This document shows positions 2-20,687 of a stretch of DNA of 64,000 bases, one piece after another. The stretch covers positions 124,001 through 188,000 of the forward strand of contig NZ_CAKKLX010000001.1 in NCBI RefSeq assembly GCF_918698155.1, read 5' to 3'. The translations under genes were made by a program, and so were the position numbers. The notes under the pieces were generated by a model. The model made no database searches, was not told the origin of the DNA, and saw nothing but the letters and a program-made list of their open reading frames with translations. Source of the stretch: Roseomonas sp. CECT 9278. GTDB taxonomy: Bacteria; Pseudomonadota; Alphaproteobacteria; Acetobacterales; Acetobacteraceae. Every line of letters begins with the position of its first letter. Within the stretch, counting starts at the first letter, position 1.

Positions 2-1027
2 CCGCACAACGAGAAGGGATTCGCATCTTGGGAAATGATGCAGGCTTGGGGGCCAGTCGATCTTTATATAGGTGGCGCTGAGCACGCGACTCTGCATCTT
101 CTATATTCTCGATTCTGGTACTTAGCGCTCTATGATTTGGGGCTAATACCCTATGCCGAGCCTTTTAAGAAGCTCGTCAATCAGGGAATGCTGGTATCTT
201 TCGCTTATAAGAACGCAAGGGGCGTTGTCATCGCCGTGGATGAGGTGATTGAAGCGGAGGACGGCCGCTTTGTGCACCAATCAAGTGGAGAGTTGGTCGA
301 GCGTATTACTACCAAGATGTCGAAATCTCTTCGCAATGTCGTAACACCGGATGAGGTGATTGCGCGATTCGGCTCCGACGCTTTCCGGATGTTCCTCATG
401 TTCATGGGGCCGGTGGAAGGTCCACGCGTCTGGGAGACCGACAAGGTTGCTTCGACAGCGCGCTTGCTAAAGCGGATCTGGTCATTCTCTGTATCCGCGG
501 AAGATGAGACTCAGCCGCGCGAATGGTGTGCGCGTGAGGAACAGCCACGCAAAGTGACGCGCGCCCTAGTAACCTTAGTTAAGGAAGTTTCCAGTGATCT
601 AGAGAATATACGGCTAAACACTTGCGTGTCAGAGATCATGAAGTTTATGAATGTTGTGGAGCATCTGCCGATTTCCAAAGAGGCGCATCGAGAATTCTTA
701 GTAGTGCTAAATCCGTTTGCGCCGTTCCTCGCCGAAGAACTCTGGAGCATACTAGGCGAAAAGAGCAGCGTGAATAAAGCGGCATGGCCCGCCGTTTCCG
801 CGAATGCCGAGATGGACGACACGGTGAACGTCGTGCTCCAGGTAAGTGGACGTAAGCGCGTTGAGGTTGAGGTCGACGCCAACGCCGACGATGAACGCTT
901 GCACTCTATCGCTGTAGCCTTGGCCAAGCCCTGGTTGGAAGCCACCGCTGGGGTCAAAGTCATCATAGTCCGTGACAAGGCGACAGGCCGGCCCAAGCTC
1001 GTGAACGTCGTTCGCGGTGCCGCGTGA
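2..1027 (+). CDS. Leucyl-tRNA synthetase paralogue (C-terminal part, cut by window edge)
   Basis: The reading frame is open to the left edge, so the N-terminal half is missing; about 341 residues are visible. They cover the end of the class I catalytic core (a GGAEHATLHLLYSRFW stretch), the KMSKS loop, the anticodon-binding helical region, and a C-terminal domain ending in KLVNVV. LeuRS charges tRNA-Leu in the cytoplasm. The residues around NQGM and the block PRVWETDKVAS look unlike the alphaproteobacterial housekeeping LeuRS as I remember it, and more like other bacterial lineages. The gene leads a lower-GC biosynthetic operon and overlaps the next gene by 4 nt. A resistant self-protection copy, or a supplier of Leu-tRNA to the pathway, is inferred. 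It could still be the only leuS. Confidence 0.9.
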   Translation, partial: PHNEKGFASWEMMQAWGPVDLYIGGAEHATLHLLYSRFWYLALYDLGLIPYAEPFKKLVNQGMLVSFAYKNARGVVIAVDEVIEAEDGRFVHQSSGELVERITTKMSKSLRNVVTPDEVIARFGSDAFRMFLMFMGPVEGPRVWETDKVASTARLLKRIWSFSVSAEDETQPREWCAREEQPRKVTRALVTLVKEVSSDLENIRLNTCVSEIMKFMNVVEHLPISKEAHREFLVVLNPFAPFLAEELWSILGEKSSVNKAAWPAVSANAEMDDTVNVVLQVSGRKRVEVEVDANADDERLHSIAVALAKPWLEATAGVKVIIVRDKATGRPKLVNVVRGAA

Positions 1028-1455
1028 GCGAGAGCAGAAATCTAGGCGCATTCTGTCTTGTACGGAACCATGACGATTTCATTCTGCTGGTGCGCCGCGC
1101 CTATGGCGATGGCGGCTGGTCGTTACCGGGAGGGAGCGTCGAGCGTGGCGAGGACATCGAACAGGCGCTGCGGCGTGAAGTTTTCGAGGAGAGCGGCGTC
1201 ACTCTCCTAGACGTAAATCTAGTTTCTGCGTTCTATTCTCGATTGAATTACTCAGTCGCATTCGTCTATTACGCTTCAGGAAGTTATTTGGCGCCGACGT
1301 TCGTGCCCGGAGGAGAGATCGCGGCCGTGGAATGGTTCAAGCCTTCGGTGCTGCCGACGGGTCTTTCGCTTCGTCAAAGAGCGTGGGTTTCGTGCCTCGT
1401 TGAGTTTGCCCGTACGGGATCATCTGAGTTCTTGAGGAGCAGTGATGTACCGTGA
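1024..1455 (+). CDS. NUDIX hydrolase
   Basis: This 143-aa protein has a perfect NUDIX box at about residues 37-59 (G-x5-E-x7-REVFEESGV), which binds the metal and cleaves X-diphosphate bonds. The length suits a single-domain NUDIX enzyme. Nucleotide-sugar or nucleoside diphosphate derivatives are typical substrates; the exact one cannot be read from sequence. The GTG start overlaps the synthetase stop (GTGA), and the stop overlaps the GTG of the next gene, so translation is probably coupled. In this operon it could trim a nucleotide-linked intermediate or detoxify a product (inference). Confidence 0.93.
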   Translation: MSESRNLGAFCLVRNHDDFILLVRRAYGDGGWSLPGGSVERGEDIEQALRREVFEESGVTLLDVNLVSAFYSRLNYSVAFVYYASGSYLAPTFVPGGEIAAVEWFKPSVLPTGLSLRQRAWVSCLVEFARTGSSEFLRSSDVP

Positions 1456-2642
1456 GACCGGAGATTGAAACGCGAATTGGAAATGAATTAATCGCCGCTC
1501 ATGGCGACTTTATTTTATTGCCTGAGGTTCAGAGCGTTTTTCGCAGGAACGAGGGACTCGCGGCACGATTGGAGTTTGTCGTTGATGAAATTGTTAAATC
1601 TGTGGGCATTGCTCACCGCTTGCTCCAGCACGAACCAGTTCCGCTGAGTTCGAGCTTCCGCTGCCGCACTAATGACGCGGTGACGGATTTGCAGAGTGTT
1701 ACGCACGCAGTCATTGTTCCTCTGGCTAATGAATCGCAGTATCTCAAGGTCCTGTGCATTTCATCGATTGCGAGGAACTTCGATCCATCGAAGTGCGTGG
1801 TGGTTTTGAATGCGCAAGAGGCATGTGATCCAGCGGCTCTGCTGCCCGACTTCAAGGTGGTGACGTTGGCAAGCGATGGGCCATTCGCTTTGCCACAAGC
1901 ATACAATCGCTCCGTAGGCTGGCTGCGTGAGACCTTCGGTTTGAAATTTGATGAGTTGGTTCTGGTTTTCATGGACGACGACGCCGAGATCGTCGGCGAC
2001 CAGCGCCCAGCCGTGCACGCACTTATGCGACGCGTCACGGCAGGCGAATGTCTCTTGGCGAGCGGCCATTACTTTGACTTCAGCCCGCCGCCAGATATGT
2101 TTGCGCGTGCGATCGAGGCTTCGGGAAGTAGCGACTTTGTCAAGCGCGTGCCGAAGCCATACTGCCACGGCGGCGCAGCGCTGATGATGCGGGGCGCTAC
2201 CTTCCCGGCTCATGGGTTGCCGGAGAGCGGTCTTGGCGGAATAAGTTTGGGGATTCTTGCCATCGAGTCGCTTGGTAAGGAATGGTCGCGGCGCGTAGAG
2301 AATGGCGATTGGTACCTTCACAATGATTCGACGCTCGCGGTACAGCACCCAAGGAAAATCAACATCCTTCAGTGGTCCGCTACCTACCTAGGCTATGCGC
2401 GGGCTTGGGGCTTGATCCTGGACAGCCTGAATGAAAAGAACCGGGCCCACTGGAAACTGCGGTTGGATGCGGGTCGCAAAGCCAGGCGACAAGCGCTCCT
2501 GGAGCAAGCGGAGCGGAATGGCGACGTGCATTCATTATCCAATCTATTGCTCACCGAAACGTTCAAGCGCCGCGTTGTGAGCGGCTTCCGCTATGACGAC
2601 TTTAGGCAGGCGGGTTTGAGCGTGCACTCTAACCTAACCTGA
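1452..2642 (+). CDS. GT-A fold glycosyltransferase-like protein
   Basis: The protein is 396 aa. From about residue 85 there is a family 2-like nucleotide-binding core (HAVIVPLANES), then an acidic VFMDDDAE motif near residue 175 matching the metal/UDP-binding DxD of GT-A enzymes. A CHGGAALMMRG segment and an acceptor-side HND follow. There is no signal peptide or membrane segment, so it should act in the cytoplasm. The GTG start overlaps the NUDIX stop. The sugar donor and acceptor are unknown. The first 80 residues match nothing I know. Its job is probably to add a sugar or related group to the operon product. Confidence 0.7.
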   Translation: MRPEIETRIGNELIAAHGDFILLPEVQSVFRRNEGLAARLEFVVDEIVKSVGIAHRLLQHEPVPLSSSFRCRTNDAVTDLQSVTHAVIVPLANESQYLKVLCISSIARNFDPSKCVVVLNAQEACDPAALLPDFKVVTLASDGPFALPQAYNRSVGWLRETFGLKFDELVLVFMDDDAEIVGDQRPAVHALMRRVTAGECLLASGHYFDFSPPPDMFARAIEASGSSDFVKRVPKPYCHGGAALMMRGATFPAHGLPESGLGGISLGILAIESLGKEWSRRVENGDWYLHNDSTLAVQHPRKINILQWSATYLGYARAWGLILDSLNEKNRAHWKLRLDAGRKARRQALLEQAERNGDVHSLSNLLLTETFKRRVVSGFRYDDFRQAGLSVHSNLT

Positions 2643-2651
2643 GAGCGCAAG

Positions 2652-3782
2652 ATGAAATTCGTCTCCACTTCCGACGAACTTTGGCGGTTCTTCCAAGCAG
2701 ATGCCCAGTCTGCTCTAGCGGGCCCTCAGACGCTGGCGGACATACGCAGCTACATCTTGGCAAGCGAAGGAATGAGCACTACACGGTGCGTCCTAATTGG
2801 CCTTGACGGACTTTCTCACCGCCATGCAGAACGCTTGTTTGGTGCGCACAAACGCGTCCGACTTTCACCGATGCTGTCGACAGTGCCGACGACGTCGAGT
2901 ACGGCCTGGACAACTATCATGACAGGAGCCCCACCGTCGCGTCACGGCGTCTACGGTGCGGCCCAATATATGCCGGCACAAAAGACGAGCGTCTTTTTCT
3001 TCGACACGCGCCTTCGGGCGGCTGGAATTGTAGACAGGTACGATATAAGCCCAGCTCGCGAAACAATAATTAGCGATTGGGTCCAACGCGGTTGGGACGC
3101 GCATTGCCTGGGCTTCCCTGCAGAGCTCGACGGGAACGCTCTAATTGGCCTTTGGACTGATCAGGCTCAGTGCAGGTGGTTGAGTGGTAGTCCAGAGGAG
3201 CGCTTCTCCAATCCAGTCAAGCTGGCGCGGGAAGTGCTCGAGCAAGCGGGGGAGCTCTTGGAATCGTCGCATAGTTTTGTCTTCGCATACCTCAATGTCG
3301 ATTGGTACATCCATGATCATGGGGTCGACGTAGCGGTCGACCAGGCCGTGCGAGAGAGCGTAGAATGGGCTGCGCGTTTTGCCAATCGATCTGGCGCGAA
3401 AGCGTTCCTCATTTCGGATCATGGCATGCGGCATCAGCCGCCAAGCGAACATAGCCTCCTAACGGATGAGGCCTTGCTAGATCTATGCCGCTGTCCCGTC
3501 GGTGGCGGCGGGCGCATTATCTATGTCTACCCCAAGGGTAGTCAGATCGACGCAGCGCGCGCTCGCTTGGTAGCGGCGGTAGGTGCAGATGGTATCGTAA
3601 TGACTAGGAAAGAGTTCATCGACGCATATCATGCAAGTCCCTTGCTGGAGCCTGAGCGTATAGGCGAGCTTGTGGTGGTATCTGGCGACGGTCGATTTCC
3701 GGGCGCAATGCCCGATTCTCCCTTCGAGCACGGCGGCGTCTCCCGTGAGGAGATGCTGGCGTTTTTTGCTGAGTTAGTGTGA
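2652..3782 (+). CDS. Type I phosphodiesterase / nucleotide pyrophosphatase-like (alkaline phosphatase superfamily)
   Basis: This 376-aa protein carries the superfamily metal ligands in order: LIGLDGLSHR (Asp near residue 52), a Thr/Ser-rich nucleophile strand TVPTTSSTAWTTIMTG (about 78-92), ISDHGM in the middle of the C-terminal half, and a late FEHGG. Relatives hydrolyse phosphodiester or pyrophosphate bonds, or transfer phospho groups, using two zinc ions. No signal peptide is visible, unlike many secreted relatives, so it may act on a cytoplasmic nucleotide-linked intermediate. The start is ATG 9 nt after the glycosyltransferase stop; the carbamoyltransferase begins 1 nt after this gene ends. 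Confidence 0.85.
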   Translation: MKFVSTSDELWRFFQADAQSALAGPQTLADIRSYILASEGMSTTRCVLIGLDGLSHRHAERLFGAHKRVRLSPMLSTVPTTSSTAWTTIMTGAPPSRHGVYGAAQYMPAQKTSVFFFDTRLRAAGIVDRYDISPARETIISDWVQRGWDAHCLGFPAELDGNALIGLWTDQAQCRWLSGSPEERFSNPVKLAREVLEQAGELLESSHSFVFAYLNVDWYIHDHGVDVAVDQAVRESVEWAARFANRSGAKAFLISDHGMRHQPPSEHSLLTDEALLDLCRCPVGGGGRIIYVYPKGSQIDAARARLVAAVGADGIVMTRKEFIDAYHASPLLEPERIGELVVVSGDGRFPGAMPDSPFEHGGVSREEMLAFFAELV

Positions 3783-3783
3783 G

Positions 3784-5337
3784 ATGGCACTCGGTGATTC
3801 AAAGCAGCCGACACTGTTGGGGTTCTATCTAGGGCTTCACGACTCGAACGTCGCCGCCCGAGTCGACGGCAAGCTTCGTTATCGCAAGTTTGAGCGCATG
3901 AGCGGGATCAAGCACCAGCGCGTTGCGCTTGATGCTATCAGAGTGGCCTGCGACGAGTGGGGCATTCGTCCGGATTACGTTGCATTCACCGACGGTAACC
4001 GAAACGGATTGGGTTCCTGTATAGGCGAAGAGCTCTGGTGCTCGTTGCCTTCGATTGGCTCGCTGGCGCCAAATGCGAAGACCTACTGTCTCGATCACCA
4101 CTATGCACATGTCTTAAGCGCAATGCCAGAAATGGCTGGTGCAAACATCGTTGGTATCGCAATCGACGGGCGCGGCGACAATGGCATTCGTGCCCGAGTA
4201 GTCCGTTTTAGCGGAGAGCTTGATGCGCAAACCATGCTGTCTTCTTCCGATTTTACAATTGGACGCTTCTTCAACCGGGTCGGCATCTCGCTAGGCTTGT
4301 CTGGCGACGACGTCGATCTCGCCGGAAAGGTCATGGGCGCACAAGCCTATGGCAATGTATGCAAAGAGTTTGTATCCGATCTCGAGATGGCTGATCCGAT
4401 TAGCCTTCCTGATCGCCTGCTTTACACCATTCCTTGGCAAGGCCGTCAGGTCTGGGGCGCGACAGATTTTTTTGATATCCGGAACCAGGCCTTCCTGGAT
4501 TGGCTGGCATCTGCGCATGACGCCCTTGGGCGCGCTGTGCTGCGCTTCTTTAGCGCGTATTGCAGCAGCGACACGCAAATTGTCTATGCGGGCGGCTGCG
4601 CCCAGAACACGGTGTTCAACACGGCGCTTTTCGAGGCTTTTCCACGGCTTGAGATACCGCCGCACGCCTACGATGGAGGGCTATCGCTGGGATGTATCGA
4701 GTTTCTTCGCCGCAAGCTCCGTCTGCCCGCTACAGATTACGCTGCTTTTCCGTTCATCCAAGATGATTGTGATGTCGGTTTCGCCTCGCGGGAAGTCGCG
4801 CAACAGGTGGCTGAACTGATAGCTGAGGGAAAGATCGTCGGCTGGATGCAGGGAAACGGCGAAATCGGGCCGAGAGCGCTAGGCCATAGATCGATCTTGA
4901 TGGATCCGCGGATCAGCGACGGGAAGGCGGTGCTTAACGAGAGAGTTAAGCGGCGCGAACCTTGGCGCCCATACGCTGGAAGTATTTTAGAACCGCATGT
5001 AACGAGTTGGTTTGAGACGAACGCACCTTCGCCATACATGCTGCGGGCGATTAAGACGCGAGAGGAGCGCCATGCGCTGATTCCGGGCATCGTGCACCAC
5101 GATGGCACCTGTCGTATTCAGACCGTGAATGCAGAGACGCCCGAGTTGGAAGCGTTCAACACGCTGCTCACCACTTTTTTTAAACTGACAGGTGTTCCAT
5201 TGGTTTTGAACACTTCTCTCAATGCCGGAGGCGAGCCAATCCACGGCGATCCGGCTCAGTCAATGAAGCTGCTAAGGGCCGGTCGTATTGACGCGCTCTG
5301 TGTCGGTAACAACCTGCTTGTGGGGGCAGACGCTTGA
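3784..5337 (+). CDS. Carbamoyltransferase, NodU/TobZ family
   Basis: The 517-aa protein starts with the Kae1-like ASKHA fold (LGLHDSN near residue 17, then metal-binding HHYAH at 105-109), followed by GGCAQNTVFN. A C-terminal domain contains NGEIGPRALGHRS and late LNTSLNAGGEPI. Family members make carbamoyl-adenylate from carbamoyl phosphate and ATP and pass the carbamoyl group to a hydroxyl of an antibiotic or Nod factor. At 517 aa it is slightly shorter than most. It is one of the strongest signs that this operon makes a decorated small molecule. Its stop overlaps the TTG of the next gene. Confidence 0.95.
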   Translation: MALGDSKQPTLLGFYLGLHDSNVAARVDGKLRYRKFERMSGIKHQRVALDAIRVACDEWGIRPDYVAFTDGNRNGLGSCIGEELWCSLPSIGSLAPNAKTYCLDHHYAHVLSAMPEMAGANIVGIAIDGRGDNGIRARVVRFSGELDAQTMLSSSDFTIGRFFNRVGISLGLSGDDVDLAGKVMGAQAYGNVCKEFVSDLEMADPISLPDRLLYTIPWQGRQVWGATDFFDIRNQAFLDWLASAHDALGRAVLRFFSAYCSSDTQIVYAGGCAQNTVFNTALFEAFPRLEIPPHAYDGGLSLGCIEFLRRKLRLPATDYAAFPFIQDDCDVGFASREVAQQVAELIAEGKIVGWMQGNGEIGPRALGHRSILMDPRISDGKAVLNERVKRREPWRPYAGSILEPHVTSWFETNAPSPYMLRAIKTREERHALIPGIVHHDGTCRIQTVNAETPELEAFNTLLTTFFKLTGVPLVLNTSLNAGGEPIHGDPAQSMKLLRAGRIDALCVGNNLLVGADA

Positions 5338-6362
5338 GTGGACATTTCGGCGCGGTGGTCGGGACGCCCAAACCCCCGATCAAGATCGGCATCTTGGGCG
5401 CATCGACTATCGCGCGCGAGGCCATGGCGCCGGCATTCAAGCGCGAGTCTCGCGTGAATGTGGTGGCTATTGCGTCTCGTAGCGCACGCAGCGCGCAAGC
5501 CTTGGCGCATACCCTTAATGTCAGTCGATGGGGACCGGGATTTGATTGGATACTTGCAGATCCCGATATCGACGCTGTCTATATCAGCTTGCCGCCATCA
5601 CTTAACGCGCATTGGACGCTCAAGTCATTGCAATCTAATAAGCACGTTCTCTGCGAAAAGCCGATCGCGCTGAACGTAAACGATGTAGCAAGGATTCGCG
5701 CTTGCGCACGCGCAGTGAGCCGCGTCGTCCGCGAAGTCGACATGTGGCGTCATCATCCGCAAATTAGGCGGCTACACGATTTGTGGCGCCGGGGCGCCTT
5801 AGGGCAGTTGCGTTCAATCGAGGCGGAGTTTACGTTTAACCTGAGTGAAGATGACCGGTTTCGTTGGTCCCGCAGTTTGGGCGGAGGCGTGCTCAACGAC
5901 CTTGGACCTTATTGTCTCGGCGCAGTTCTAGAATTCTGTCCGGGGATTCTGGACATTCTTGAGGCGCGCTTCTCTTGGGCGGGCAACGGGCCCAACCAAG
6001 TGGAGACCGCGATGGAGGCCACACTTGCGGCGGCGGGTGGCATCACGGCTCGGATCTTCTGCTCCTTCGTCGATACGCCACGCCAACGCCTTGTTTTGCG
6101 TGGTGCGGACGATTCGGTCACGCTGAACCAGCCCTGGGCAGTTGGAATTGATAGCGAGCAGCCTTTGCCCGTCCACCTTGTACGCGGCGCCCGGACAGAG
6201 CGGTTTGGTGAATTCGATCCCTACCTGATGATGCTGGGAGACTTCGCGGAGCGCATCAACGGCGGGGACCTAGGAAGCTTCGCATTGGAGCGTTGCGAGC
6301 GCCGGGTAGCGCTCGCAGCCGAACTGCAGCTGTGTGCGCGCCGGTCGCAGGGTGCAACGTGA
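5334..6362 (+). CDS. Gfo/Idh/MocA family oxidoreductase
   Basis: This is a 342-aa NAD(P)-dependent dehydrogenase. An N-terminal Rossmann motif (KIGILGASTIA) is followed by DPDIDAVYISLPPSLNAHW and the family signature CEKPIALN. The C-terminal half is the substrate domain, with GGGVLNDLGPYC. Relatives oxidise or reduce sugars and sugar nucleotides. The likely start is TTG at 5334, giving a TTGA overlap with the carbamoyltransferase; an in-frame GTG lies at 5355. Its stop overlaps the GTG of the next gene. Sugar or cyclitol tailoring in the same pathway is inferred. Confidence 0.93.
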   Translation: MSGHFGAVVGTPKPPIKIGILGASTIAREAMAPAFKRESRVNVVAIASRSARSAQALAHTLNVSRWGPGFDWILADPDIDAVYISLPPSLNAHWTLKSLQSNKHVLCEKPIALNVNDVARIRACARAVSRVVREVDMWRHHPQIRRLHDLWRRGALGQLRSIEAEFTFNLSEDDRFRWSRSLGGGVLNDLGPYCLGAVLEFCPGILDILEARFSWAGNGPNQVETAMEATLAAAGGITARIFCSFVDTPRQRLVLRGADDSVTLNQPWAVGIDSEQPLPVHLVRGARTERFGEFDPYLMMLGDFAERINGGDLGSFALERCERRVALAAELQLCARRSQGAT

Positions 6363-7429
6363 GATACGTGCCCCATTTCAAGTTGCTGCCCAGGCCCACG
6401 CTCGTGGTCGACAGCTTCGTGCGGACGCCGCATTGCACACTGGAGCTGAGCCACTGGCCCGGCAACAGAACACCAGCCCACCTTAAACGCGACACGAGCA
6501 CCGAAGCGGTTATCGCATGGCTTAGAGCAGACGGGGATTCGACGCGGTCAATTGAGCAGGTAACGGTCGATCACTTCGACGTCGATGGCCTGCTGGCCGC
6601 GTGGTGCGCCATCTTCCCCGCTGCCGCGTTAGAGCATGCGCAACTGCTGACTCAGGCCGCGTCAACAGAAGATTTTGATCGCTTCGAAACGGTAGAAAGT
6701 CTCGAACTTACGTTTGATCTGCTCGCAATTGAACAAGATTTCGCGTGTGAAGCAGCGCACGCTGGCGTCTCAGGTGCCGACCTGTGGACTGCGCATCTGT
6801 ACGCAAGCGTTTTGCCGGCAGTCGAGAGGTGCTTGGCCGGAAGGTTTGCCCACGAGTTGAGTTGGCGTTCTGAGTTTACCCAAGTGATGCTCTCCTTGGA
6901 CAGCCTGCGCACGGGCGCCGGCGGCACGGAGGTTTTGAGACGACCGGATCTAGACTTGGCTCTCGTAACAAGTGAGCATGCATTGCATCCGTACGCTATC
7001 AATGCCGCTCTGCCGGAGACCCGGCTGATTGTCTGTGTACCAGGACGGCGTACGCAGTTTCTCTACCGTTATGAATCATTTGTCGAGATGGTGTCGCGTA
7101 ACGTGCCAGGTCGCGCGCCGCTGAGCCCAATGGCGGAAGTTTTGAACCGTCATGAGCAAAACGGCGTTTGGATCGCCGAGGGCATGCTTGCGGCGCATCC
7201 ACGCGTGCTCTTCTTCGGTGGTGACGCTAACATCAACGATTCATCAATCACGCCCGGAGCGCTGATTGAGTTGATAGCCGGTTACTTTCTCGATCATGCA
7301 CTAGCCAGAAGGTCGTTGTGGACCCCGTCTATGGGACTACCGCTCGAAGACGATAAGCACCCCGAAATGCTTGTGCGTCCGCCTTGGATGGCCAAACATG
7401 GACATCCGCGCGTGGGAGGGGCCTCGTGA
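6359..7429 (+). CDS. DUF6687 family protein
   Basis: I choose the GTG at 6359, which makes a 4-nt GTGA overlap with the upstream stop and gives 356 aa; the frame is also open for 66 nt upstream. Near the N-terminus are VDSFVRTPHCTLELSHWPGN and, further on, VDHFDVDGLLAAW, which I associate with DUF6687. The acidic DHFD-DGL block resembles metal-binding patches of phosphoesterases, but that is only a resemblance. No membrane segment or secretion signal is seen. Function is unknown. Its place among tailoring enzymes suggests a pathway role. Confidence 0.75.
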   Translation: MRYVPHFKLLPRPTLVVDSFVRTPHCTLELSHWPGNRTPAHLKRDTSTEAVIAWLRADGDSTRSIEQVTVDHFDVDGLLAAWCAIFPAAALEHAQLLTQAASTEDFDRFETVESLELTFDLLAIEQDFACEAAHAGVSGADLWTAHLYASVLPAVERCLAGRFAHELSWRSEFTQVMLSLDSLRTGAGGTEVLRRPDLDLALVTSEHALHPYAINAALPETRLIVCVPGRRTQFLYRYESFVEMVSRNVPGRAPLSPMAEVLNRHEQNGVWIAEGMLAAHPRVLFFGGDANINDSSITPGALIELIAGYFLDHALARRSLWTPSMGLPLEDDKHPEMLVRPPWMAKHGHPRVGGAS

Positions 7430-7746
7430 CCGCTTTGCAGCAGTTCGTGTTGATCCCTAACGTTGAGGAACTTGCCGAAGGCGAGACAAGGATTGTGGGC
7501 GTGTCCGGGGTCGATATGCTAGCGATACGGTTTGAGAACGTAGTCTACGCAGTCTCCGCAACGTGTCCACATCGCGGCGGGCCTTTAGCGACCGGGCTGA
7601 TCGCATCAGGGGTTATAGTCTGCCCTTGGCATGGTTCTGAATTCCGAATCGCAGACGGTGCACTGGTTGCTGGCCCATCGAAGTGCGCGCTTAAGACATG
7701 GCCTCTCACCTTAGACGGCGTGGTTGCTTATGTCTCGCTCGGCTAA
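7426..7746 (+). CDS. Rieske [2Fe-2S] ferredoxin-like protein
   Basis: The 106-aa protein has the two Rieske cluster motifs CPHRGG (Cys47, His49) and CPWHGS (Cys66, His69), 15 residues apart, in a single small domain. Such proteins pass electrons to Rieske oxygenases or other redox enzymes. The GTG start at 7426 overlaps the upstream stop, with a GGGAGGGG ribosome binding site 5 nt before it; a longer in-frame ATG at 7384 is less likely. No oxygenase alpha subunit or reductase is seen in the window, so its partner is either left of the window or encoded elsewhere. Confidence 0.93.
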   Translation: MTALQQFVLIPNVEELAEGETRIVGVSGVDMLAIRFENVVYAVSATCPHRGGPLATGLIASGVIVCPWHGSEFRIADGALVAGPSKCALKTWPLTLDGVVAYVSLG

Positions 7747-8653
7747 TGCCAACGACACGCACAATATTCTCGAGGGCCTGAACGCGCGCTTGATACGTCG
7801 CGATAACGCGCTATCGGTCACGGATGCTGATATTGCGAACGAGGTGCTGCGGGACAATCAGTACCGGCTCTCCAGGGAAATCGGCCTGAATAATGCTGTG
7901 TTCGTCGATGTGGGTGGTCACATTGGGACATTTTCAGCCGCCGTTCTGGCGCTGTTTGATGGTGCTTCTGTGCTTGTTTACGAACCCGATTCGGAGAATT
8001 TTAGTTTTCTTATCAAAAACCTTGCCTTTGAAGTGGAGCGCAACCGTGCTCACTGCTTTAACGTCGCCGTTGACGCGCGCGAAGGTGAGTTGAGCCTATA
8101 CGTCAATACGTCGAACCGCGGAGGTTCGATCACTCGCGCGCTCGAAGGCGACGCTTGCGCCATCCCCGTGAAGGCTCATTCGATCAGAGACATTCTCGAA
8201 TCCATCGCGGAGGGTAGTGATGTTGTGCTTAAGCTCGATTGCGAAGGTGCCGAGTACGCGATCCTTGACTCGCTGTTTCCGATGCAAATCCGGTCAGTCT
8301 GCCTGGTCATCATGGAGCTTCACTTAACGCCAGCCCTCTCGCGTGAGCGGCGCGATCCAGCCGCGGTGCTGCATCGGCTAACCGAGGCAGGCTTTCGCGT
8401 ATACGTCCTCGAAGAGATCGTCTACGCGGGTGAGGGCGTCTTTTGGATTGTTGCAGCTGTCAACCAACGCTTTAGCCACCTTGGTGCCCTTGGTGAGCAC
8501 TATGCGGCATGCGTACCTCGGATAGGCGGCGATCGATGGTACCGCCGCATCACAAACGGACGTCAACCGGCGTTGCGCGGTGGAGTTGGTTGGTGGCGGG
8601 GGAAGCTTTGGCTGGCGATGGGTGCCGGTGTCCTTGGATGGGGCGAGCCATGA
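7730..8653 (+). CDS. FkbM family SAM-dependent methyltransferase
   Basis: This 307-aa protein has the class I methyltransferase motif I NAVFVDVGGHIGTFS, the acidic strand VYEPDSENF (motif II), and VVLKLDCEGAEYAIL, which is characteristic of FkbM enzymes. These usually O-methylate sugars or polyketide hydroxyls. The ATG at 7730 lies within the Rieske gene, overlapping it by 17 nt. The last 60 residues are Gly/Trp/Arg-rich and may be an extension specific to this cluster. The gene ends in an ATGA overlap with the next. Confidence 0.9.
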   Translation: MSRSANANDTHNILEGLNARLIRRDNALSVTDADIANEVLRDNQYRLSREIGLNNAVFVDVGGHIGTFSAAVLALFDGASVLVYEPDSENFSFLIKNLAFEVERNRAHCFNVAVDAREGELSLYVNTSNRGGSITRALEGDACAIPVKAHSIRDILESIAEGSDVVLKLDCEGAEYAILDSLFPMQIRSVCLVIMELHLTPALSRERRDPAAVLHRLTEAGFRVYVLEEIVYAGEGVFWIVAAVNQRFSHLGALGEHYAACVPRIGGDRWYRRITNGRQPALRGGVGWWRGKLWLAMGAGVLGWGEP

Positions 8654-10488
8654 GCGCGAATCTGGCCGACAGCCTCCTTGCGCTTCGCGCTAAGTCCGTA
8701 GGCCTACGTCCGGCAAAAACCGTCGGTCGTTGGGGCGCGTTGGCGAAGATCGCTAGGCGGTTGGGACATACGCTCTCCGATTGTGCAAGACTGCGCGCGC
8801 TTGTGAACGGGGAAGCCTTGTGCGCGTCAGTTGATCCTAACGACGCGTGGGCGATTAACGTTTCGAACTTCGTATGGGGTCACTATATCGTAACGCGGCC
8901 CGCAGATGACCGCTGGTTAGCCTTTAACTTGGTTGAATTGGCGAAATTCCGCCCACAAGCGCTGAATTTGCAGACGATACTCCATGAAATATGCAGTTTG
9001 GACCGATTAGAATTAGATCGGTTGTTGGATGGCGGGTGCTTTCATTTTCATGCGCATGGCAACGTAGCCGTGAGCTCGATCAAGCGTTTGGCGATCACAA
9101 TTCCAGCATTCAACGCTCCCGATCTTGTTGAGGCATTGCTCTTAGCGCTCCAGGACAACGCACTCCTATTTGGTTGGAAGGCTCCTATTGTCTTGTTCGA
9201 CGGATCGTCGACTGAGGATTTGCAGCGCGCAATCGAGCGGTTGGCTGTTCGGCACTCTGCCGAGCCATGCCCGGTCGTTTATCTCGGTCGAAAACACTCG
9301 TCGGTCGCGGAGATGCCGTCGATCGACGCGTTTGTCTCTGCTGCCGCCAAGGCGCTAGACGACTCGTCTATAGAAGAGCTTTTCAGTACGAGTGTAGGAG
9401 GAAATCTGAATTGCTGTTTCTCCTATTTCGGACCAGACGTAAGTATTTTGAATTTTGACCACGACGTTCTTCCCAGCGTTGAAGTTAACGAAGATATTCT
9501 AAGTCGACTCGAAACGTCATGTGTCGCCTCGGTCGGGGAGGACGTTCTCATAGAGCGCGGCGAGCCTGCTGTCGGACTGGGGGTCCAGATCCCGGTAGAC
9601 TTTATGTCGGCCATCAGGGTGAGCGACTCGCTATGCCTGACTGGTGACGAAGTCAGGGACGGAGATGATGAGTCGTATCGGAAAATAAAATTGCATCATT
9701 TGTCGGGTAACGCGGAATATTGGGTAACTCACATCGCAGGCATACAAGATCATAGCGCTCGTTGGTTACTTGAAGGGGCTCTCCTCCGTCGTGAGAGCTT
9801 GCGCGGCGCCGAGCCATCTCGATTTGCGCCTACCGCGCCAACGCTGCCGGCCCTCGTCTTCCGATCCAAGCTGATCACGACTACGCTGACGTTACGATTG
9901 GCGGGGGGGGCGGGTGTGTCGTTCGGATTCGCGGGTACGCGTGTGCGGGTCCAGGACTTTGTGACCGGCACCCAGCACAACGCATCCACGGGACAGCCAA
10001 TTGGGTGGGCGCCTGTATACATGACCCACAATCGGAAATTCGGCATGCGCGGCGAGGAGGACTTCGGTGGGTATCTTTACAACGAAGAGATAATGTACGC
10101 GTTCCTGTCGGCGCTTGAGGCAATAGAGATTCGCGCTTCCCACGGTCAAGTGAGCAATTTCGCAGATGTTTGGAAGGAAGAGGCGGCTCTCGCCATATCA
10201 TCAACGTGGGCGCGCGCGGTGCGAGAGCGTGCGCAGCATTGGTGCAAAGTTCTAGAGCAAAATCCTGTAGACGCGAGCTATAGCCGCGCGGCAAGGTCCA
10301 TCCGAAACCACTTCATGTTGGACGAATCCGATGCCGTGGCTGAAATAGAACTACTCGCGTGCGCCGGCGCCGAATCCAACCTAATTGAACGCCACGTGCG
10401 AACGCGCGAGCGATTGAATACTGCGCTCCGCGAGAGGGGTGTCTCGTGGTTTTGTTCGGCATCAGGATCTGGAAGCGTTGGGGGCTGA
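8650..10488 (+). CDS. Large glycosyltransferase-like protein
   Basis: From ATG 8650 (ATGA overlap) the product is 612 aa. The first 130 residues are helical and unrecognised. Around residues 135-330 is a GT-A-like pattern: LAITIPAFNAPDLVEAL, VVYLGRK, and the acidic ILNFDHDVLP that could be the DxD metal site. A later MTHNRKFGMRGEEDFGG resembles the acceptor/catalytic acid region of processive family 2 enzymes. No transmembrane helices are visible. This is the second glycosyltransferase-like gene in the operon. The fold assignment is an inference; donor and acceptor are unknown. Confidence 0.6.
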   Translation: MSANLADSLLALRAKSVGLRPAKTVGRWGALAKIARRLGHTLSDCARLRALVNGEALCASVDPNDAWAINVSNFVWGHYIVTRPADDRWLAFNLVELAKFRPQALNLQTILHEICSLDRLELDRLLDGGCFHFHAHGNVAVSSIKRLAITIPAFNAPDLVEALLLALQDNALLFGWKAPIVLFDGSSTEDLQRAIERLAVRHSAEPCPVVYLGRKHSSVAEMPSIDAFVSAAAKALDDSSIEELFSTSVGGNLNCCFSYFGPDVSILNFDHDVLPSVEVNEDILSRLETSCVASVGEDVLIERGEPAVGLGVQIPVDFMSAIRVSDSLCLTGDEVRDGDDESYRKIKLHHLSGNAEYWVTHIAGIQDHSARWLLEGALLRRESLRGAEPSRFAPTAPTLPALVFRSKLITTTLTLRLAGGAGVSFGFAGTRVRVQDFVTGTQHNASTGQPIGWAPVYMTHNRKFGMRGEEDFGGYLYNEEIMYAFLSALEAIEIRASHGQVSNFADVWKEEAALAISSTWARAVRERAQHWCKVLEQNPVDASYSRAARSIRNHFMLDESDAVAEIELLACAGAESNLIERHVRTRERLNTALRERGVSWFCSASGSGSVGG

Positions 10489-10552
10489 TCCGTCACATAG
10501 CTGCCGGTGTCCGTTGCGCCCGCCGCCGTTCAGCGGTGCCGGGAAGGTAAAA

Positions 10553-11287
10553 TTGCGAACCGGAGTACTGCTGGATGAGGATGCTTGGCACAAGCGCCTC
10601 CATTCGCTTGGTCCGGATGGTCGCGCAGCTCTCTTGGCGGTTTGCGAAGAGAAAATTGGGAGCGGGACTTTGGCAGTGGGTGTCATTGGAAGTTTTACAT
10701 ATGACAATCTTGGGTGGGACGACGTTGACCTCGTTGCGGTGACTTGGGGTATTGGTAATATTGACGTGCGAAATTTTCCTTTATACGTTGGAGGTAAAAA
10801 TACCAGTGTTGACTTAATCTCGATACCATTCGAAATATTGGCGGATCCCAGCCGCGCGCCCGACACAGATTTTCCGCTCTTTCAAGATTCGCGTGGGGAA
10901 GATTATTCCGATCTCTGCATGCGTCGTCGCTGCATGGTAACGGCGCTCAGATGCTCATTGAACTTTGCCCACTGGCTGACCGAGGATGATCAGCTAACAC
11001 AGAGCGTACTCGTTGCGGGTGAAGCTGATCTTGCTTTCGTGATTTCACGTTTGGTTGCTGAAGCCCGCTCCTACCTTGCTGATCCGGAAGACCGCGTGAA
11101 GGCGCTGAGACGACTAGAAATGGCGCGTCTGGTTGCTCGGCAGTGGCAACCGTTCGACGCCGATGAGGAATTGCTGTTAGAGCGACTTCGACGTGATCCA
11201 TTTGGCGCACATTGGGTGCGGGGGCTAGAGCTCTGCGAACGCGCCCAGGCAAGGATCGTTAACGGGATGGACAGGAAGGAGGGGTAG
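10553..11287 (+). CDS. Nucleotidyltransferase-like protein
   Basis: The recognisable part contains GVIGSFTYDNLGWDDVDLVAV, matching the GS...DxD signature of the minimal nucleotidyltransferase fold (kanamycin nucleotidyltransferase/DNA polymerase beta type). A helical C-terminal half follows. The start is uncertain. TTG at 10553 has GGGAAGG 5 nt upstream and gives 244 aa; a GTG at 10439 would overlap the previous gene by 50 nt and has no well-placed binding site. It could adenylylate a pathway intermediate or act in resistance. It is followed 2 nt later by the amidotransferase gene. Confidence 0.55.
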   Translation: MRTGVLLDEDAWHKRLHSLGPDGRAALLAVCEEKIGSGTLAVGVIGSFTYDNLGWDDVDLVAVTWGIGNIDVRNFPLYVGGKNTSVDLISIPFEILADPSRAPDTDFPLFQDSRGEDYSDLCMRRRCMVTALRCSLNFAHWLTEDDQLTQSVLVAGEADLAFVISRLVAEARSYLADPEDRVKALRRLEMARLVARQWQPFDADEELLLERLRRDPFGAHWVRGLELCERAQARIVNGMDRKEG

Positions 11288-11289
11288 CG

Positions 11290-12534
11290 ATGTGCGGCTT
11301 CATCGTAGACTTTGACGATGCTCCCGTGCTTGCTGAGAGGGTGCGTCGCCGCGGGCCCGATCATCATGGTGAGGTTGTGCGTGGGGGGTTCAGGTTCAGT
11401 CACTTTCTGCTTCACATAACGGGATCGCTTCTTCCGCAGCCTTTGGTCGATGGCGATATTGTGTGCGTCTTTAATGGCGAGATCTATAATCATCCACATA
11501 CGGTGAGCGATGGCGAGGTTATTATTCCTCTCTACCGGAAGTTCGGGTCTGCCTTCGCGCGTGAACTTGATGGCGAATTCGCGATCGCACTTTACGATTT
11601 TGCTAAGCGCGAAGCGGTGTTCATCACTGATCCTTTTAGCTCCAAACCACTTTGGATCGATGGGCTCCGTTGCTCGAGTTACGTCGGGGCACTTGGACAA
11701 GGCATACAATTGCCGCCTAATACGCTTTTAGTACGCTCCTTCGACTGTGGCGAAAAATCGTTTATCGTACGTCCCTTTGATTTCCGAAATCAACATAAGA
11801 CTAACTTAGACGACTGGACGAGAGCGCTCAAGCGGTCGATCGAAAAGCGCGCTGTTCATGATTGCTTTATTGGTCTTAGTGCGGGCTATGATAGTGGCGT
11901 CATAGCAGTGATAATGCAAGAACTTGGAATAAAGTTTTCATCCTACTCCCTCGCCGGATCCGAAAATATGGAGGTGCTGCGTGAAAGAGTGGAACAGTTT
12001 AATGCTGCGTGGGTCGATGAGGAGGACGCAGACGTCGCGTGGGCTCGATCGTTCCTTAAGGAGTACGTCGAGGAGTATTGCTATGGCAGCGTTGCGGGGG
12101 TGACTCTTCCCTATGAACTCATGACTGACGATGTCGGCGCCATCGCTTCGTGCTTGCTGTACAGACATGCACACTCTGAGGGGAAACGCATTGTGCTGTC
12201 TGGGCAAGGTGCCGACGAAATTTATGCCGATTATCCGTTTTGGCCGGCAGTTGGCGGGTTACGGGGTATTTTTCCAGAGAAACTAGAGCCATGGGTGAAC
12301 TTTAGCGGCGGTTGCCAGCGTGCATTTCTTGCCAAGGAAGAGCACATCGCTGGTGCCTTTGGTATTGAGGCGCGTTATCCATTCCTCGATTGGGCTCTGG
12401 TACAGGAATTCTTGTGGTTGAGCCAAAATTTGAAGAATAGCGCCTACAAGGCGCCGCTAGCGTCGATTCTGTCGTCACATCATATCGCCTGGGCAGCTGG
12501 TCAGAAAACTGGATTCGGGCCCAGGAAAAGGTAG
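11290..12534 (+). CDS. Asparagine synthetase-like class II glutamine amidotransferase
   Basis: The 414-aa protein begins Met-Cys-Gly-Phe, exposing the N-terminal nucleophile Cys of class II glutaminases, with RGPD (21-24) and FNGEIYN (61-67). The synthetase half has the ATP PP-loop written SAGYDSG (197-203) instead of the usual SGGxDS, and GQGADEIYADYPF. It is about 100-200 residues shorter than ordinary AsnB. Such enzymes amidate carboxylates or form amide and beta-lactam bonds in natural-product pathways. A strong AGGAGG site precedes the ATG. An amide-forming step on the operon product is likely. Confidence 0.93.
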   Translation: MCGFIVDFDDAPVLAERVRRRGPDHHGEVVRGGFRFSHFLLHITGSLLPQPLVDGDIVCVFNGEIYNHPHTVSDGEVIIPLYRKFGSAFARELDGEFAIALYDFAKREAVFITDPFSSKPLWIDGLRCSSYVGALGQGIQLPPNTLLVRSFDCGEKSFIVRPFDFRNQHKTNLDDWTRALKRSIEKRAVHDCFIGLSAGYDSGVIAVIMQELGIKFSSYSLAGSENMEVLRERVEQFNAAWVDEEDADVAWARSFLKEYVEEYCYGSVAGVTLPYELMTDDVGAIASCLLYRHAHSEGKRIVLSGQGADEIYADYPFWPAVGGLRGIFPEKLEPWVNFSGGCQRAFLAKEEHIAGAFGIEARYPFLDWALVQEFLWLSQNLKNSAYKAPLASILSSHHIAWAAGQKTGFGPRKR

Positions 12535-12582
12535 GGTGGTCAAGCTCTTGAAATCATCAGCAATCCTGTGGGCGCACAAGCT

Positions 12583-13476
12583 ATGTCAAAACAAACTCTG
12601 ACGATTGCAGTGATCCAGCCTGATGCGGTACCGAGTGGAGTTCGGTATCCGAAGATCGCTGCCCTTGAACTCACAGAGAAACTGCTTGAAGAGGCAGCTC
12701 GCGCGCACCCGGATATCGTGTTGTTACCGGAGATCCTCAACGTTGGCTTTAGCGACGATGGCCTGCCCCCGGAGCGGCGATGGCAGATCAACATTGATGC
12801 TGCGGTTGACGGCGAAGACGATATTTTTATTCAACGATTTCAGCAATATGCCCGCCAGAACAAGTGCGCAGTGGCCGTTGGCGCGCTGAGACGAGCAGGA
12901 ATTTCAGTTTACGATAGCATGTTCTTGTTCGACCAATATGGCGAGCTGAGGCTCCTCTATGATAAAGTTCATTTGGCTGCCTTCGATTTCGAGGCGCGCT
13001 TCGTAGCCGGTAAGAGTTTTTCGACTGCAACGCTTCACACGCGATGCGGACTGGTCCAGGTCGGCTGCATGATCTGCTACGATCGCGAGTTTCCGGAGAG
13101 CGCCAGATGCCTCATGCTTGGCGGTGCCGAGATCGTTTTGACAGCCAACTGTTGTGTATTGGATCAGAAGCGCATTGGGCAGTTTCAGGCTCGAGCATTT
13201 GAGAACGCAATAGCAATGGCGATGGCGAATTATGCGCAGCCGCTCGGTGGTCGCTCGCTAACTGTCGATGCTGAAGGGGAGGTAGTTGCCATCGCAGGCG
13301 GGACCGAGCAGGCGCTTATTGGCGCGATTGATCTCGATAAGCTGCGGCACTATCGCTCGAGCTGCGGCTGGGGAGACGCTTTCCGGCGGCCCAACCTCTA
13401 CGCCGCAATCGGGCGGCCATCTGGCTTGGTCGAGTTTGATCGTCGAGATTTTCTCGGGCGCCCGTTCGAAAAGTAA
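12583..13476 (+). CDS. Carbon-nitrogen hydrolase (nitrilase superfamily)
   Basis: This 297-aa protein has the complete catalytic triad in context: Glu50 (IVLLPEI), Lys128 (LLYDKVHL) and Cys165 (MICYDREFPE). It is the normal length for the superfamily, whose members hydrolyse amides, nitriles or carbamoyl groups. The ATG at 12583 is used; an in-frame GTG 15 nt earlier is an alternative. It is the last clearly recognisable gene of the operon, 48 nt after the amidotransferase. It may release or trim an amide in the product, or supply nitrogen (inference). Confidence 0.93.
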   Translation: MSKQTLTIAVIQPDAVPSGVRYPKIAALELTEKLLEEAARAHPDIVLLPEILNVGFSDDGLPPERRWQINIDAAVDGEDDIFIQRFQQYARQNKCAVAVGALRRAGISVYDSMFLFDQYGELRLLYDKVHLAAFDFEARFVAGKSFSTATLHTRCGLVQVGCMICYDREFPESARCLMLGGAEIVLTANCCVLDQKRIGQFQARAFENAIAMAMANYAQPLGGRSLTVDAEGEVVAIAGGTEQALIGAIDLDKLRHYRSSCGWGDAFRRPNLYAAIGRPSGLVEFDRRDFLGRPFEK

Positions 13477-13551: not shown

Positions 13552-13683
13552 ATGACACAAGTCTCGTTTGGGAACAACGCAATGCCGCCTATCATGGCTA
13601 ACCCGATGATCCATGTCGACGGTCGAGAAAATGACAATAATAAACCACATTTATTGCCACAACGAACTACCAATACTGTATAG
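13552..13683 (+). CDS. Possible 43-residue peptide
   Basis: A short open frame begins with ATG at 13552, preceded by CACGGAG about 6 nt upstream, and ends with TAG. The peptide starts MTQVSFGNNAM, has several Pro and Met residues in the first half, and ends in a polar Asn/His/Gln/Thr-rich tail. It lies 75 nt after the nitrilase gene on the same strand, and its last 17 nt overlap the end of the convergent decarboxylase gene. It could be a precursor or scaffold peptide for the preceding enzymes, or a chance frame. I know no homologue. Confidence 0.35.
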   Translation: MTQVSFGNNAMPPIMANPMIHVDGRENDNNKPHLLPQRTTNTV

Positions 13684-14152
13684 CGTACACTGCCACCACC
13701 AATGCGCACACAGGTTGCCCCTCACAGACGGCGCTGGCGATCTCACTATTTACTCGGTCGAAATCGATACCGCGACCCTGCTGCATCGCTCCCAGTGTGA
13801 GTGCCAGCTCCCGATCAAGGCGCTCGCGATCACTGCCGTGCAACTCGACGAAAAGGCCGTGGCCGCCTTGCGCGTGCTGCACCCAGCCGATGCCAGCATG
13901 CACGATCTCGCCCAACTGCGAGCCGCGCATCTGCGACAACACAACGTACAGCCGCTGGCCCCAATGTTCCGGCGGTGTCGTCCAGCGCCGACGTTCGATT
14001 CGACTACCAGGCGGGATTACCGACGAAAGGTACAAGAGGTTGTAATCAGCCACCCCCGCATCGCGCAGCGCGGCATCGAATGCGGCCATTTCGGTCGGCC
14101 CGCGACCCACTCCGCGCGCTATCACGATTGGACCAAATGGTAGCGAGTTCAT
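13667..14152 (-). CDS. Pyruvoyl-dependent arginine decarboxylase
   Basis: This 161-aa protein carries LPFGPIVIARGVGRGPTE at the N-terminus and NLLYLSSVIPPGS, the Ser-Ser self-cleavage site where this family generates its pyruvoyl cofactor. A later GWVQHAQGGHGLFVE segment matches the active-site half. Arginine is decarboxylated to agmatine. The ATG at 14152 has AAGAGG 7 nt upstream and overlaps the stop of the preceding small frame (ATGA); a longer start at 14173 is less likely. It is convergent to the biosynthetic operon, so probably transcribed separately. Confidence 0.85.
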   Translation of the reverse strand: MNSLPFGPIVIARGVGRGPTEMAAFDAALRDAGVADYNLLYLSSVIPPGSRIERRRWTTPPEHWGQRLYVVLSQMRGSQLGEIVHAGIGWVQHAQGGHGLFVELHGSDRERLDRELALTLGAMQQGRGIDFDRVNSEIASAVCEGQPVCALVVAVYAIQYW

Positions 14153-14373
14153 GGCACAACCTCTTGAGAACACGCGGTAAGAATTATGCTGCCTTGGGTT
14201 AATACTGCGTCGTCATCGTCCACTGCCAGCCAGCCGGAACGCCCGTGGCGCTGGTGGAGCTGATGGATAAGGAGAAGGCCATGTGCTGTCTCCGGCCACA
14301 TCAATGCCTTGCATACATAGCAGATCGTAGGCGGCAGTTCCCATAGGTTGTACCGCCGTGTGATCCTCGTCAT
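14149..14373 (-). CDS. Small protein coupled to the decarboxylase gene
   Basis: An open frame of about 74 codons from ATG 14373 (extendable to 14430) ends in an ATGA overlap with the arginine decarboxylase start. It contains NLWELPPTICYVCKALMWPE and an acidic VDDDDAV segment. I do not recognise a family. The precise coupling to a genuine gene is the main support; the start is poorly defined, with GGGAAGG directly against the ATG. It could be a partner of the decarboxylase or simply a chance frame. Confidence 0.35.
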   Translation of the reverse strand: MTRITRRYNLWELPPTICYVCKALMWPETAHGLLLIHQLHQRHGRSGWLAVDDDDAVLTQGSIILTACSQEVVP

Positions 14374-17638: not shown

Positions 17639-17649
17639 TAGGCATCCCC

Positions 17650-17802: not shown

Positions 17803-17812
17803 CTGCTGCTCC

Positions 17813-20668: not shown

Positions 20669-20687
20669 GCTGCGCTGTCTTCCGGGT

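What the first reader, a model, noticed from the sequence alone, without database searches (positions are those of the whole stretch)
2..13476. A compact biosynthetic-type operon without NRPS or PKS, combining LeuRS, two glycosyltransferase-like enzymes, carbamoyl, methyl and amide transferases
Thirteen plus-strand genes, most overlapping by 4 nt, encode enzymes that each modify small molecules (NUDIX, phosphodiesterase, carbamoyltransferase, dehydrogenase, Rieske, FkbM methyltransferase, nucleotidyltransferase, amidotransferase, amidase). I know no described cluster with this set. A nucleotide- or sugar-linked, carbamoylated and amidated product is inferred.
Basis: partly seen in the sequence, partly recalled or inferred. 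Interest (0 to 1): 0.8.

Follow-up and report, generated by a model that had tools for sequence, protein, structure and literature searches.

The report
Prophage-borne biosynthetic operon with spare LeuRS
A bacterial virus lying dormant in this genome carries, in a slot where related viruses carry other passenger genes, an intact 13-gene set that looks built to make an unknown small molecule and includes a second, divergent leucyl-tRNA synthetase that may protect the cell from it.

Summary
Thirteen intact plus-strand genes form one operon. It starts 1.7 kb left of the window with a complete 901-aa leucyl-tRNA synthetase (LeuRS); 4-nt overlaps occur at 6 of 12 junctions, not most. The catalytic motifs checked are present and the genes share one low-GC composition (52-60%).

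It lies between the tail-fibre gene and the right attachment site. Related prophages carry metal efflux, FtsH/ClpB, Wadjet or amidohydrolase genes in that slot.

The LeuRS is not a copy of the host enzyme (about 36% identical). It groups with Bacillus/plasmid-type LeuRS on a long branch, like the branch of AgnB2, the agrocin 84 immunity LeuRS, but has none of AgnB2's four resistance residues tested. No other locus examined held more than one further operon gene, so a conserved pathway is not shown.

Best reading: a glycosylated, carbamoylated, amidated cytosolic product, with LeuRS as spare target (0.45). The prophage-cargo anatomy is well supported, misassembly apart; the product and the role of LeuRS are inferred.

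The parts
2..1027 (+). 3' part of a 901-aa leucyl-tRNA synthetase; gene starts 1.68 kb left of the window (C1:122322)
   Evidence: (leuS_bact, 897 bits, cut-off 548)
1024..1455 (+). NUDIX hydrolase, 143 aa, Nudix box present
1452..2642 (+). 396-aa protein, probable GT2-type glycosyltransferase
   Evidence: no Pfam hit; 28% over 256 aa to a Glycos_transf_2 protein
2652..3782 (+). type I phosphodiesterase / nucleotide pyrophosphatase (alkaline-phosphatase fold)
   Evidence: PF01663 E 4e-17
3784..5337 (+). NodU/TobZ-type O-carbamoyltransferase, close to cyanophage carbamoyltransferases and to a few bacterial ones
5334..6362 (+). Gfo/Idh/MocA sugar oxidoreductase
6359..7429 (+). DUF6687 protein (DHFDxDG motif; possible DHH-type phosphoesterase, a guess)
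   Evidence: PF20392 E 7e-63
7426..7746 (+). Rieske [2Fe-2S] ferredoxin, CxH and CxxH present
7730..8653 (+). FkbM-type methyltransferase
   Evidence: PF05050 E 1.3e-10
8650..10488 (+). 612-aa orphan protein with a GT2-like segment
   Evidence: no relatives; weak GT2 match
10553..11287 (+). nucleotidyltransferase-like protein (GS...DVD motif); start uncertain between 10439 and 10553
   Evidence: (no Pfam hit)
11290..12534 (+). glutamine-dependent amidotransferase, small asparagine-synthase-like, Cys2 and SxGxDS present
12583..13476 (+). nitrilase-superfamily amidase (E, K, C motif residues present; best NCBIfam match N-carbamoylputrescine amidase, under its cut-off)
13667..14173 (-). pyruvoyl-dependent arginine decarboxylase, convergent with the operon, in the same right arm
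   Evidence: PF01862 E 2.1e-27
14695..14732 (+). right attachment site of prophage P2 (38-nt motif); P3 starts at 14733
14733..23807 (-). left arm of the next prophage P3: WYL, HEAT, HARE-HTH genes and type III restriction-modification-like genes
24183..25535 (-). serine recombinase of P3 (Resolvase and Recombinase domains); the 450-aa recombinase of P2 (C1:79078-80430) matches a PHROG integrase family

Best explanation
The thirteen genes are one horizontally acquired operon, carried as right-arm cargo by a tandemly integrated prophage, and make a soluble specialised metabolite without NRPS or PKS. Proposed order, all inferred from enzyme families: the nucleotidyltransferase activates a sugar or nucleotide, the Gfo/Idh/MocA enzyme and the two GT2-like proteins build the glycosidic part, the amidotransferase forms an amide, carbamoyltransferase and FkbM methyltransferase decorate hydroxyls, the Rieske protein feeds electrons to an oxygenation, and NUDIX, phosphodiesterase, DUF6687 and nitrilase trim or detoxify phosphorylated or amide intermediates. 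The divergent LeuRS is most likely a self-resistance copy of the target, as AgnB2 is for agrocin 84, so the product would be a leucine- or leucyl-adenylate-like inhibitor of ordinary LeuRS. Shown here: operon, prophage slot, motifs present, foreign divergent LeuRS. Not shown: product, target, immunity, export.
For: Operon intact and uniform: 13 of 13 frames open, GC 0.518-0.597, GC3 0.52-0.65, against GC3 0.80-0.90 in four nearby restriction, recombinase and tail-fibre genes. Motifs present. LeuRS: full leuS_bact match, HIGH, KMSKS and editing motifs kept; about 36% to the host LeuRS overall (blocks of 37% and 47%); groups with four rhizobial plasmid LeuRS and an Anoxybacillus one (split 100/100; its own place inside 90/83) but on a branch of 2.42 against 0.1-0.44 for those five; differs at 23 of 177 columns invariant in 30 other LeuRS, AgnB2 at 27 of 177; against 29 others the host LeuRS differs at 18 of 195, Anoxybacillus at 5 of 182, R. 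anhuiense at 4 of 181. 12 of 13 proteins have no hydrophobic window above 1.6, FkbM has two. Prophage slot. AgnB2 precedent: PMC5059758, passages seen.
Against: No conserved neighbourhood found. None of the AgnB2 residues T42, A102, Q413, Q573 is present; ours are the residues of the ordinary LeuRS aligned. No agrocin biosynthesis gene matches except a 70-aa NUDIX stretch at 40%. No exporter among the 13. The long LeuRS branch may be lineage divergence rather than resistance; the tree program warns of long branches meeting. Low GC is not special to the operon: the HEAT and HARE genes of P3 have GC3 0.60 and 0.55. No sigma-70-like promoter found upstream.
Confidence: 0.45

Rival explanations
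1. Lysogenic conversion of surface glycans: sugar oxidoreductase, two glycosyltransferases, carbamoyl-, methyl- and amidotransferases modify lipopolysaccharide or capsule sugars and change phage receptors, with LeuRS a passenger.
For: The GT2-like matches are to glycosyltransferases, one in an exopolysaccharide-like region; phages commonly alter host surface (recalled); the carbamoyltransferase is close to cyanophage enzymes.
Against: No flippase, polymerase, acyltransferase or other membrane protein in the operon; 12 of 13 products soluble by hydropathy. It does not explain LeuRS, NUDIX, phosphodiesterase, Rieske or nitrilase.
Confidence: 0.2
2. The LeuRS is a pathway enzyme: it supplies leucyl-tRNA or leucyl-adenylate to a transferase in the operon, which puts leucine into the product.
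For: LeuRS is the first gene, overlaps the NUDIX gene by 4 nt, and keeps the motifs checked; two or three proteins of unclear function could be acceptor enzymes.
Against: No FemX/MurM-like, cyclodipeptide-synthase-like or peptide-aminoacyl-tRNA-ligase-like match in Pfam (13 of 13 proteins) or NCBIfam (10 of 13 scanned). An ordinary host LeuRS could supply leucyl-tRNA.
Confidence: 0.15
3. A phage-phage competition device: a modified nucleotide or small molecule made by the prophage that blocks other phages, like the defence genes in the left arms.
For: The left arms of P1, P2 and P3 carry type I, CBASS type II plus type II, and type III-like genes; one related right arm carries Wadjet JetA and an SMC-like gene; the NUDIX protein has a partial match to a candidate defence model, PDC-S07.
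Against: No PADLOC match in the other 9 of 10 operon proteins scanned (LeuRS, Gfo and Rieske not scanned). Other right arms carry metal, stress and amidohydrolase genes.
Confidence: 0.1
4. A patchwork of unrelated cargo genes that never formed one pathway.
For: No co-occurrence of more than one further operon gene in any locus examined.
Against: Tight same-strand packing, 6 four-base overlaps, one composition, all frames open, motifs present.
Confidence: 0.1

Closest known systems
Agrocin 84 cluster of plasmid pAgK84 (AgnB2 LeuRS)
   Same: Mobile element with a biosynthetic gene set and a second LeuRS on a long branch; a NUDIX gene on the same plasmid; no NRPS or PKS annotated (PMC5059758 passages)
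   Different: LeuRS of another branch with none of four AgnB2 resistance residues; no homologues of agnA or the agnC genes; carried by a prophage instead of a conjugative plasmid; carbamoyltransferase, GT2-like and DUF6687 genes instead
TobZ / NodU / cyanophage carbamoyltransferases
   Same: Same two domains, conserved DHHYAH and GPRALGxRS
   Different: In 4 of 4 cyanophage loci no other operon gene matches; in 57 genome loci only weak amidotransferase matches in four and a 30-aa nitrilase match in one
Prophage cargo (moron) regions and tRNA-integrated genomic islands
   Same: Variable genes between the last structural gene and the attachment site
   Different: The cargo here is a 13-gene biosynthetic-type operon, and each tandem prophage has two cargo arms
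Bacillus-type LeuRS on plasmids (rhizobia, Anoxybacillus)
   Same: Nearest LeuRS branch, GLHVGHP signature
   Different: Those lack shared neighbours, apart from a 77-aa amidotransferase match near the Anoxybacillus one, and sit on short branches

Membership tests
Agrocin-84-type aaRS-inhibitor cluster | second LeuRS in the cluster, divergent from the host LeuRS | tested here: met
Agrocin-84-type aaRS-inhibitor cluster | TM84-resistance residues T42, A102, Q413, Q573 | tested here: not met
   ours P, N, R, M
Agrocin-84-type aaRS-inhibitor cluster | homologues of agnA and agnC genes | tested here: not met
   tblastn of the 13 proteins against 38.7 of 44.4 kb of pAgK84 matched only LeuRS and a NUDIX stretch
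Agrocin-84-type aaRS-inhibitor cluster | product inhibits LeuRS | not testable with these tools
   needs chemistry
Prophage cargo (moron region) | inside an att-bounded element with integrase, terminase, portal, capsid and tail genes | tested here: met
Prophage cargo (moron region) | different cargo at the same place in related elements | tested here: met
   P1 and P3, and 7 of 18 fetched stretches with the att motif, five of them scanned; none of the 18 holds an operon gene
Prophage cargo (moron region) | own promoter | tested here: inconclusive
   no sigma-70-like site in a consensus scan, which misses other promoter types
NRPS or PKS cluster | adenylation/condensation or ketosynthase domains | tested here: not met
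   no such Pfam match in 13 proteins
NodU/TobZ carbamoyltransferase | Carbam_trans_N and _C domains with conserved motifs | tested here: met
   (C domain well over its cut-off; N domain 23.9 bits, just under its cut-off of 24)
Surface-glycan modification cluster | membrane flippase, polymerase or acyltransferase | tested here: not met

The most novel reading that the evidence does not exclude
A temperate phage carries the complete recipe for an antibiotic that inhibits leucyl-tRNA synthetase together with the immune LeuRS, so that lysogens poison non-lysogenic competitors: an agrocin-like weapon of new chemistry whose spread and immunity travel by phage, in a phage family with two interchangeable cargo arms, one for defence and one for traits.
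Probability: 0.2. Interest if true: 0.85.

Novelty: new variant of a known kind. Interest (0 to 1): 0.56.

Why it matters
If the reading is right, a new natural-product class with a clear molecular target (LeuRS) is encoded on a phage, and target-based immunity is a handle for finding it. Even if the product is something else, the locus shows that these tRNA-Gly prophages hold whole multi-gene trait packages in a defined right-arm slot, which makes the question of how phages spread biosynthetic and stress operons testable by comparing right arms across the genus.

Tried and rejected
Relatives of the 612-aa protein: plasmids, viral contigs and genome contigs gave none, 59 related genomes only the genome itself; 337 genomes of the class gave one other, partial GT2-like match. 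Relatives of the 396-aa protein: plasmids and viral contigs none; 398 genomes gave one other, a GT2 protein. DUF6687: 2 of 299 genomes including our own, and 1 plasmid record; viral contigs none; the two relatives lie beside an MFS transporter gene. Carbamoyltransferase: viral contigs none; second and last genome-contig scan 57 loci, none with more than one other operon gene; four cyanophage loci none. LeuRS: plasmid copies share at most one short match; the one viral contig has no other operon gene in its locus (its whole record searched with the amidotransferase alone). 80 of 80 recombinase loci from viral contigs (1.07 Mb, flanks only up to 10 kb) and 18 right-arm stretches hold no operon gene. 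PADLOC on 10 of 13 operon proteins: one partial NUDIX match. Structure predictions of the 612-aa protein and of DUF6687 from single sequences were useless (mean pLDDT 32 and 36), so no fold search was run. PDB sequence searches of three unknowns gave nothing credible. Rfam and tRNA scans of the window: nothing. A DNA search of P3 structural genes against plasmids found nothing. Rejected: a LeuRS remnant (the gene is complete), and host chromosomal DNA between two prophages (the att motif closes the element after the arginine decarboxylase gene). Literature searches listed no paper that I recognised as describing this gene set; only listings and abstract beginnings were seen, except passages of PMC5059758.
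Full report
1. What is in the sequence. The window is bases 124001-188000 of contig C1 of a 113-contig draft genome. Its first ORF is the 3' part of a gene that starts at C1:122322; the whole gene encodes a 901-aa leucyl-tRNA synthetase that matches the bacterial LeuRS model at 897 bits, cut-off 548. Twelve further plus-strand ORFs follow to window 13476. None of the thirteen has an internal stop. Six of the 12 junctions are 4-nt overlaps; the others are +9, +1, -17, +64, +2 and +48. Starts were re-chosen from the sequence; the start of the nucleotidyltransferase-like gene is uncertain. Pfam names ten of the thirteen. The 396-aa and 612-aa ORFs have no Pfam match; each gave one weak match to a protein that Pfam calls glycosyltransferase family 2 (28% over 256 aa; 29% over 65 aa, E 4.4e-4, 3.6e-6 in a two-locus database). 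Motifs of LeuRS, NUDIX, phosphodiesterase, carbamoyltransferase, Gfo/Idh/MocA, Rieske, FkbM, amidotransferase and nitrilase are present (the motif meanings are recalled, and the phosphodiesterase and Rossmann patterns are loose).

2. One unit, foreign. GC per gene is 0.518-0.597 and third-position GC 0.52-0.65 in all 13, against third-position GC of 0.80-0.90 in the type III RM-like, recombinase and P3 tail-fibre genes. Flanking 2-kb bins have GC 0.67-0.74 on the left and 0.64-0.74 from window 18000 on. The low GC is not special to the operon: the HEAT and HARE genes of the next prophage have third-position GC 0.60 and 0.55, the arginine decarboxylase gene 0.67. TTA and CTA make 17% of leucine codons in 11 operon genes (FkbM and the nucleotidyltransferase-like gene were left out) against 1.6% in four phage or RM genes. 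Hydropathy finds no membrane segment in 12 of 13 proteins, two marginal windows in FkbM. There is no exporter in the operon.

3. The operon is prophage cargo. Left of LeuRS lie phage tail genes. A 38-nt motif occurs exactly at C1:70691, 138695 (window 14695) and 204682, and with one mismatch at 216690. The DNA to the right of the first two copies matches (84% and 79%) the DNA to the right of a tRNA-Gly(GCC) gene at C1:3564-3638. This defines three tandem elements: P1 3639-70728 (67,090 bp), P2 70729-138732 (68,004 bp) and P3 138733-204719 (65,987 bp), then a remnant. They align collinearly over the first ~190 bp and again from the serine recombinase to the tail fibre, and differ in a left arm and a right arm. 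P2 has integrase, terminase, portal, capsid/protease, tape-measure and tail-fibre matches in PHROGs; 9 of 10 proteins scanned had a match, 8 of them to a family of named function, one of these weak. P2 also has IS4/IS5-type transposase genes in its tail region and may be defective. The LeuRS operon and a convergent arginine decarboxylase gene fill the right arm of P2, C1:121.9-138.7 kb.

4. The right arm is a cargo slot. Tail-fibre matches were found in 35 of 35 genomes of the genus, some of them short or weak. Of 18 downstream stretches fetched (two only 1.8 and 3.4 kb long), 7 show a variant of the same motif 11-17 kb after the tail fibre; 11 do not. A reversed and reverse-complement control of 632,984 bases had no hit, but the pattern had been shaped on those seven. 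In five of the seven, selected proteins were scanned: an RND efflux pump and a heavy-metal P-type ATPase (L237), Wadjet JetA and an SMC-like gene (L238), FtsH with ClpB (L240, L250) and an amidohydrolase (L242); L243 and L246 were not scanned. None of the 18 stretches holds an operon gene. The left arms hold defence genes: type I restriction (P1), CBASS type II genes with type II restriction-modification (P2), type III-like genes (P3; Pfam, weak PADLOC matches). The P3 recombinase has 315 confirmed relatives in viral contigs; the 80 loci kept hold no operon gene within their flanks.

5. The LeuRS. The genome has another LeuRS on contig C3. Among 299 genomes of the phylum the listed matches, other than ours, are 33-39% identical over the main block (the list was cut); plasmid copies reach 45%. 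In a 32-row tree ours falls with one Anoxybacillus and four rhizobial plasmid LeuRS (split 100/100), on a long branch (2.42); AgnB2 (2.83) and the host LeuRS (1.57) also have long branches, and the program warns that the place of such rows is unsure. Ours departs from 23 of 177 columns that are invariant in 30 others, AgnB2 from 27 of 177; against 29 others the host enzyme departs from 18 of 195, two short-branch relatives from 5 of 182 and 4 of 181. Catalytic and editing motifs are kept. In PMC5059758 (passages seen) AgnB2 resistance is tied to T42, A102, Q573 and, for tRNA placement, Q413; ours has the ordinary residues at all four. So ours looks specialised but would need another route to resistance.

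6. Relatives. No other locus with the operon was found. The 612-aa protein has no close relative in plasmids, viral contigs or genome contigs (84,980 species), and only itself in 59 related genomes; in 337 genomes of the class one other weak GT2-like match. The carbamoyltransferase is close to cyanophage enzymes (up to 38% by tblastn, 37-40% in an alignment) and to bacterial ones in 57 genome loci, the best of them 41-42% over nearly the whole length (L126-L128). Of those 57 loci, at E 1e-5 one, and at E 1e-2 four, also hold an amidotransferase-like match, one other holds a 30-aa nitrilase match, and none holds more than one other operon gene; several loci are short. DUF6687 relatives (2 loci) lie beside an MFS gene and share nothing else. 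Six plasmid LeuRS loci share at most one short match besides LeuRS: NUDIX in pAgK84, amidotransferase near the Anoxybacillus gene. Patterns from single sequences find only close relatives, and no metagenome scan was available, so rarity rather than uniqueness is shown.

7. Mechanism and rivals. I favour a cytosolic specialised metabolite with LeuRS as spare target (0.45). Surface-glycan change (0.2), LeuRS as pathway enzyme (0.15), phage-phage competition (0.1) and patchwork (0.1) remain. The product, its target and the immunity are not shown. Agmatine from the neighbouring arginine decarboxylase could be a building block; this is a guess, though the operon's nitrilase is most like N-carbamoylputrescine amidase (under that model's cut-off).

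8. Limits. Tandem prophages with long stretches of 77-90% identity can be misjoined in draft assemblies. The host taxon was not told. Gene calls outside the window come from a simple script of mine. A palindromic repeat with 38 matches in this genome, many partial and its own included, lies just before LeuRS, which suggests that the operon has sat in this genome, or a close relative, long enough to gather a resident repeat.

Noticed in passing
contig C1:3639-204719 (window holds the end of P2 and most of P3): Three tandem prophages of 66-68 kb in one tRNA-Gly gene, plus a remnant ending near C1:216727; near-constant size despite different cargo.
   Followed up: yes
C1:71199-78547 (locus L013): Left arm of P2: CBASS type II genes (cyclase, E1-E2, JAB) followed by type II restriction-modification genes; the possible effector ORF at 74369-75667 was not scanned.
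   Followed up: partly
window 13667-14173, minus strand: Pyruvoyl-dependent arginine decarboxylase alone at the end of the cargo arm, next to an N-carbamoylputrescine-amidase-like gene.
   Followed up: partly
C1:122061-122203, L002:16061-16203: Palindromic interspersed repeat between a tail-fibre-like stretch and LeuRS; 38 matches in the genome, many partial.
   Followed up: partly
L002:4610-5421: IS4/IS5-type transposase genes inside the tail region of P2, so P2 may be defective.
   Followed up: partly
L240 and L250 right arms: FtsH and ClpB genes as cargo of related prophages, like a transmissible stress-tolerance locus (name recalled).
   Followed up: partly
L238:2610-15510: Right arm of a related prophage carries a 2024-aa DUF4011/MTES_1575 helicase-nuclease-like ORF next to Wadjet JetA and an SMC-like gene.
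   Followed up: partly
L019 and L020: DUF6687 gene beside an MFS transporter gene in two other genomes; a DHFDxDG motif is conserved in all three proteins aligned.
   Followed up: partly
window 15253-17638, minus strand: HEAT-repeat and HARE-HTH genes at the left end of P3; no PADLOC match for the HEAT protein, the HARE protein was not scanned; possible undescribed defence genes.
   Followed up: no
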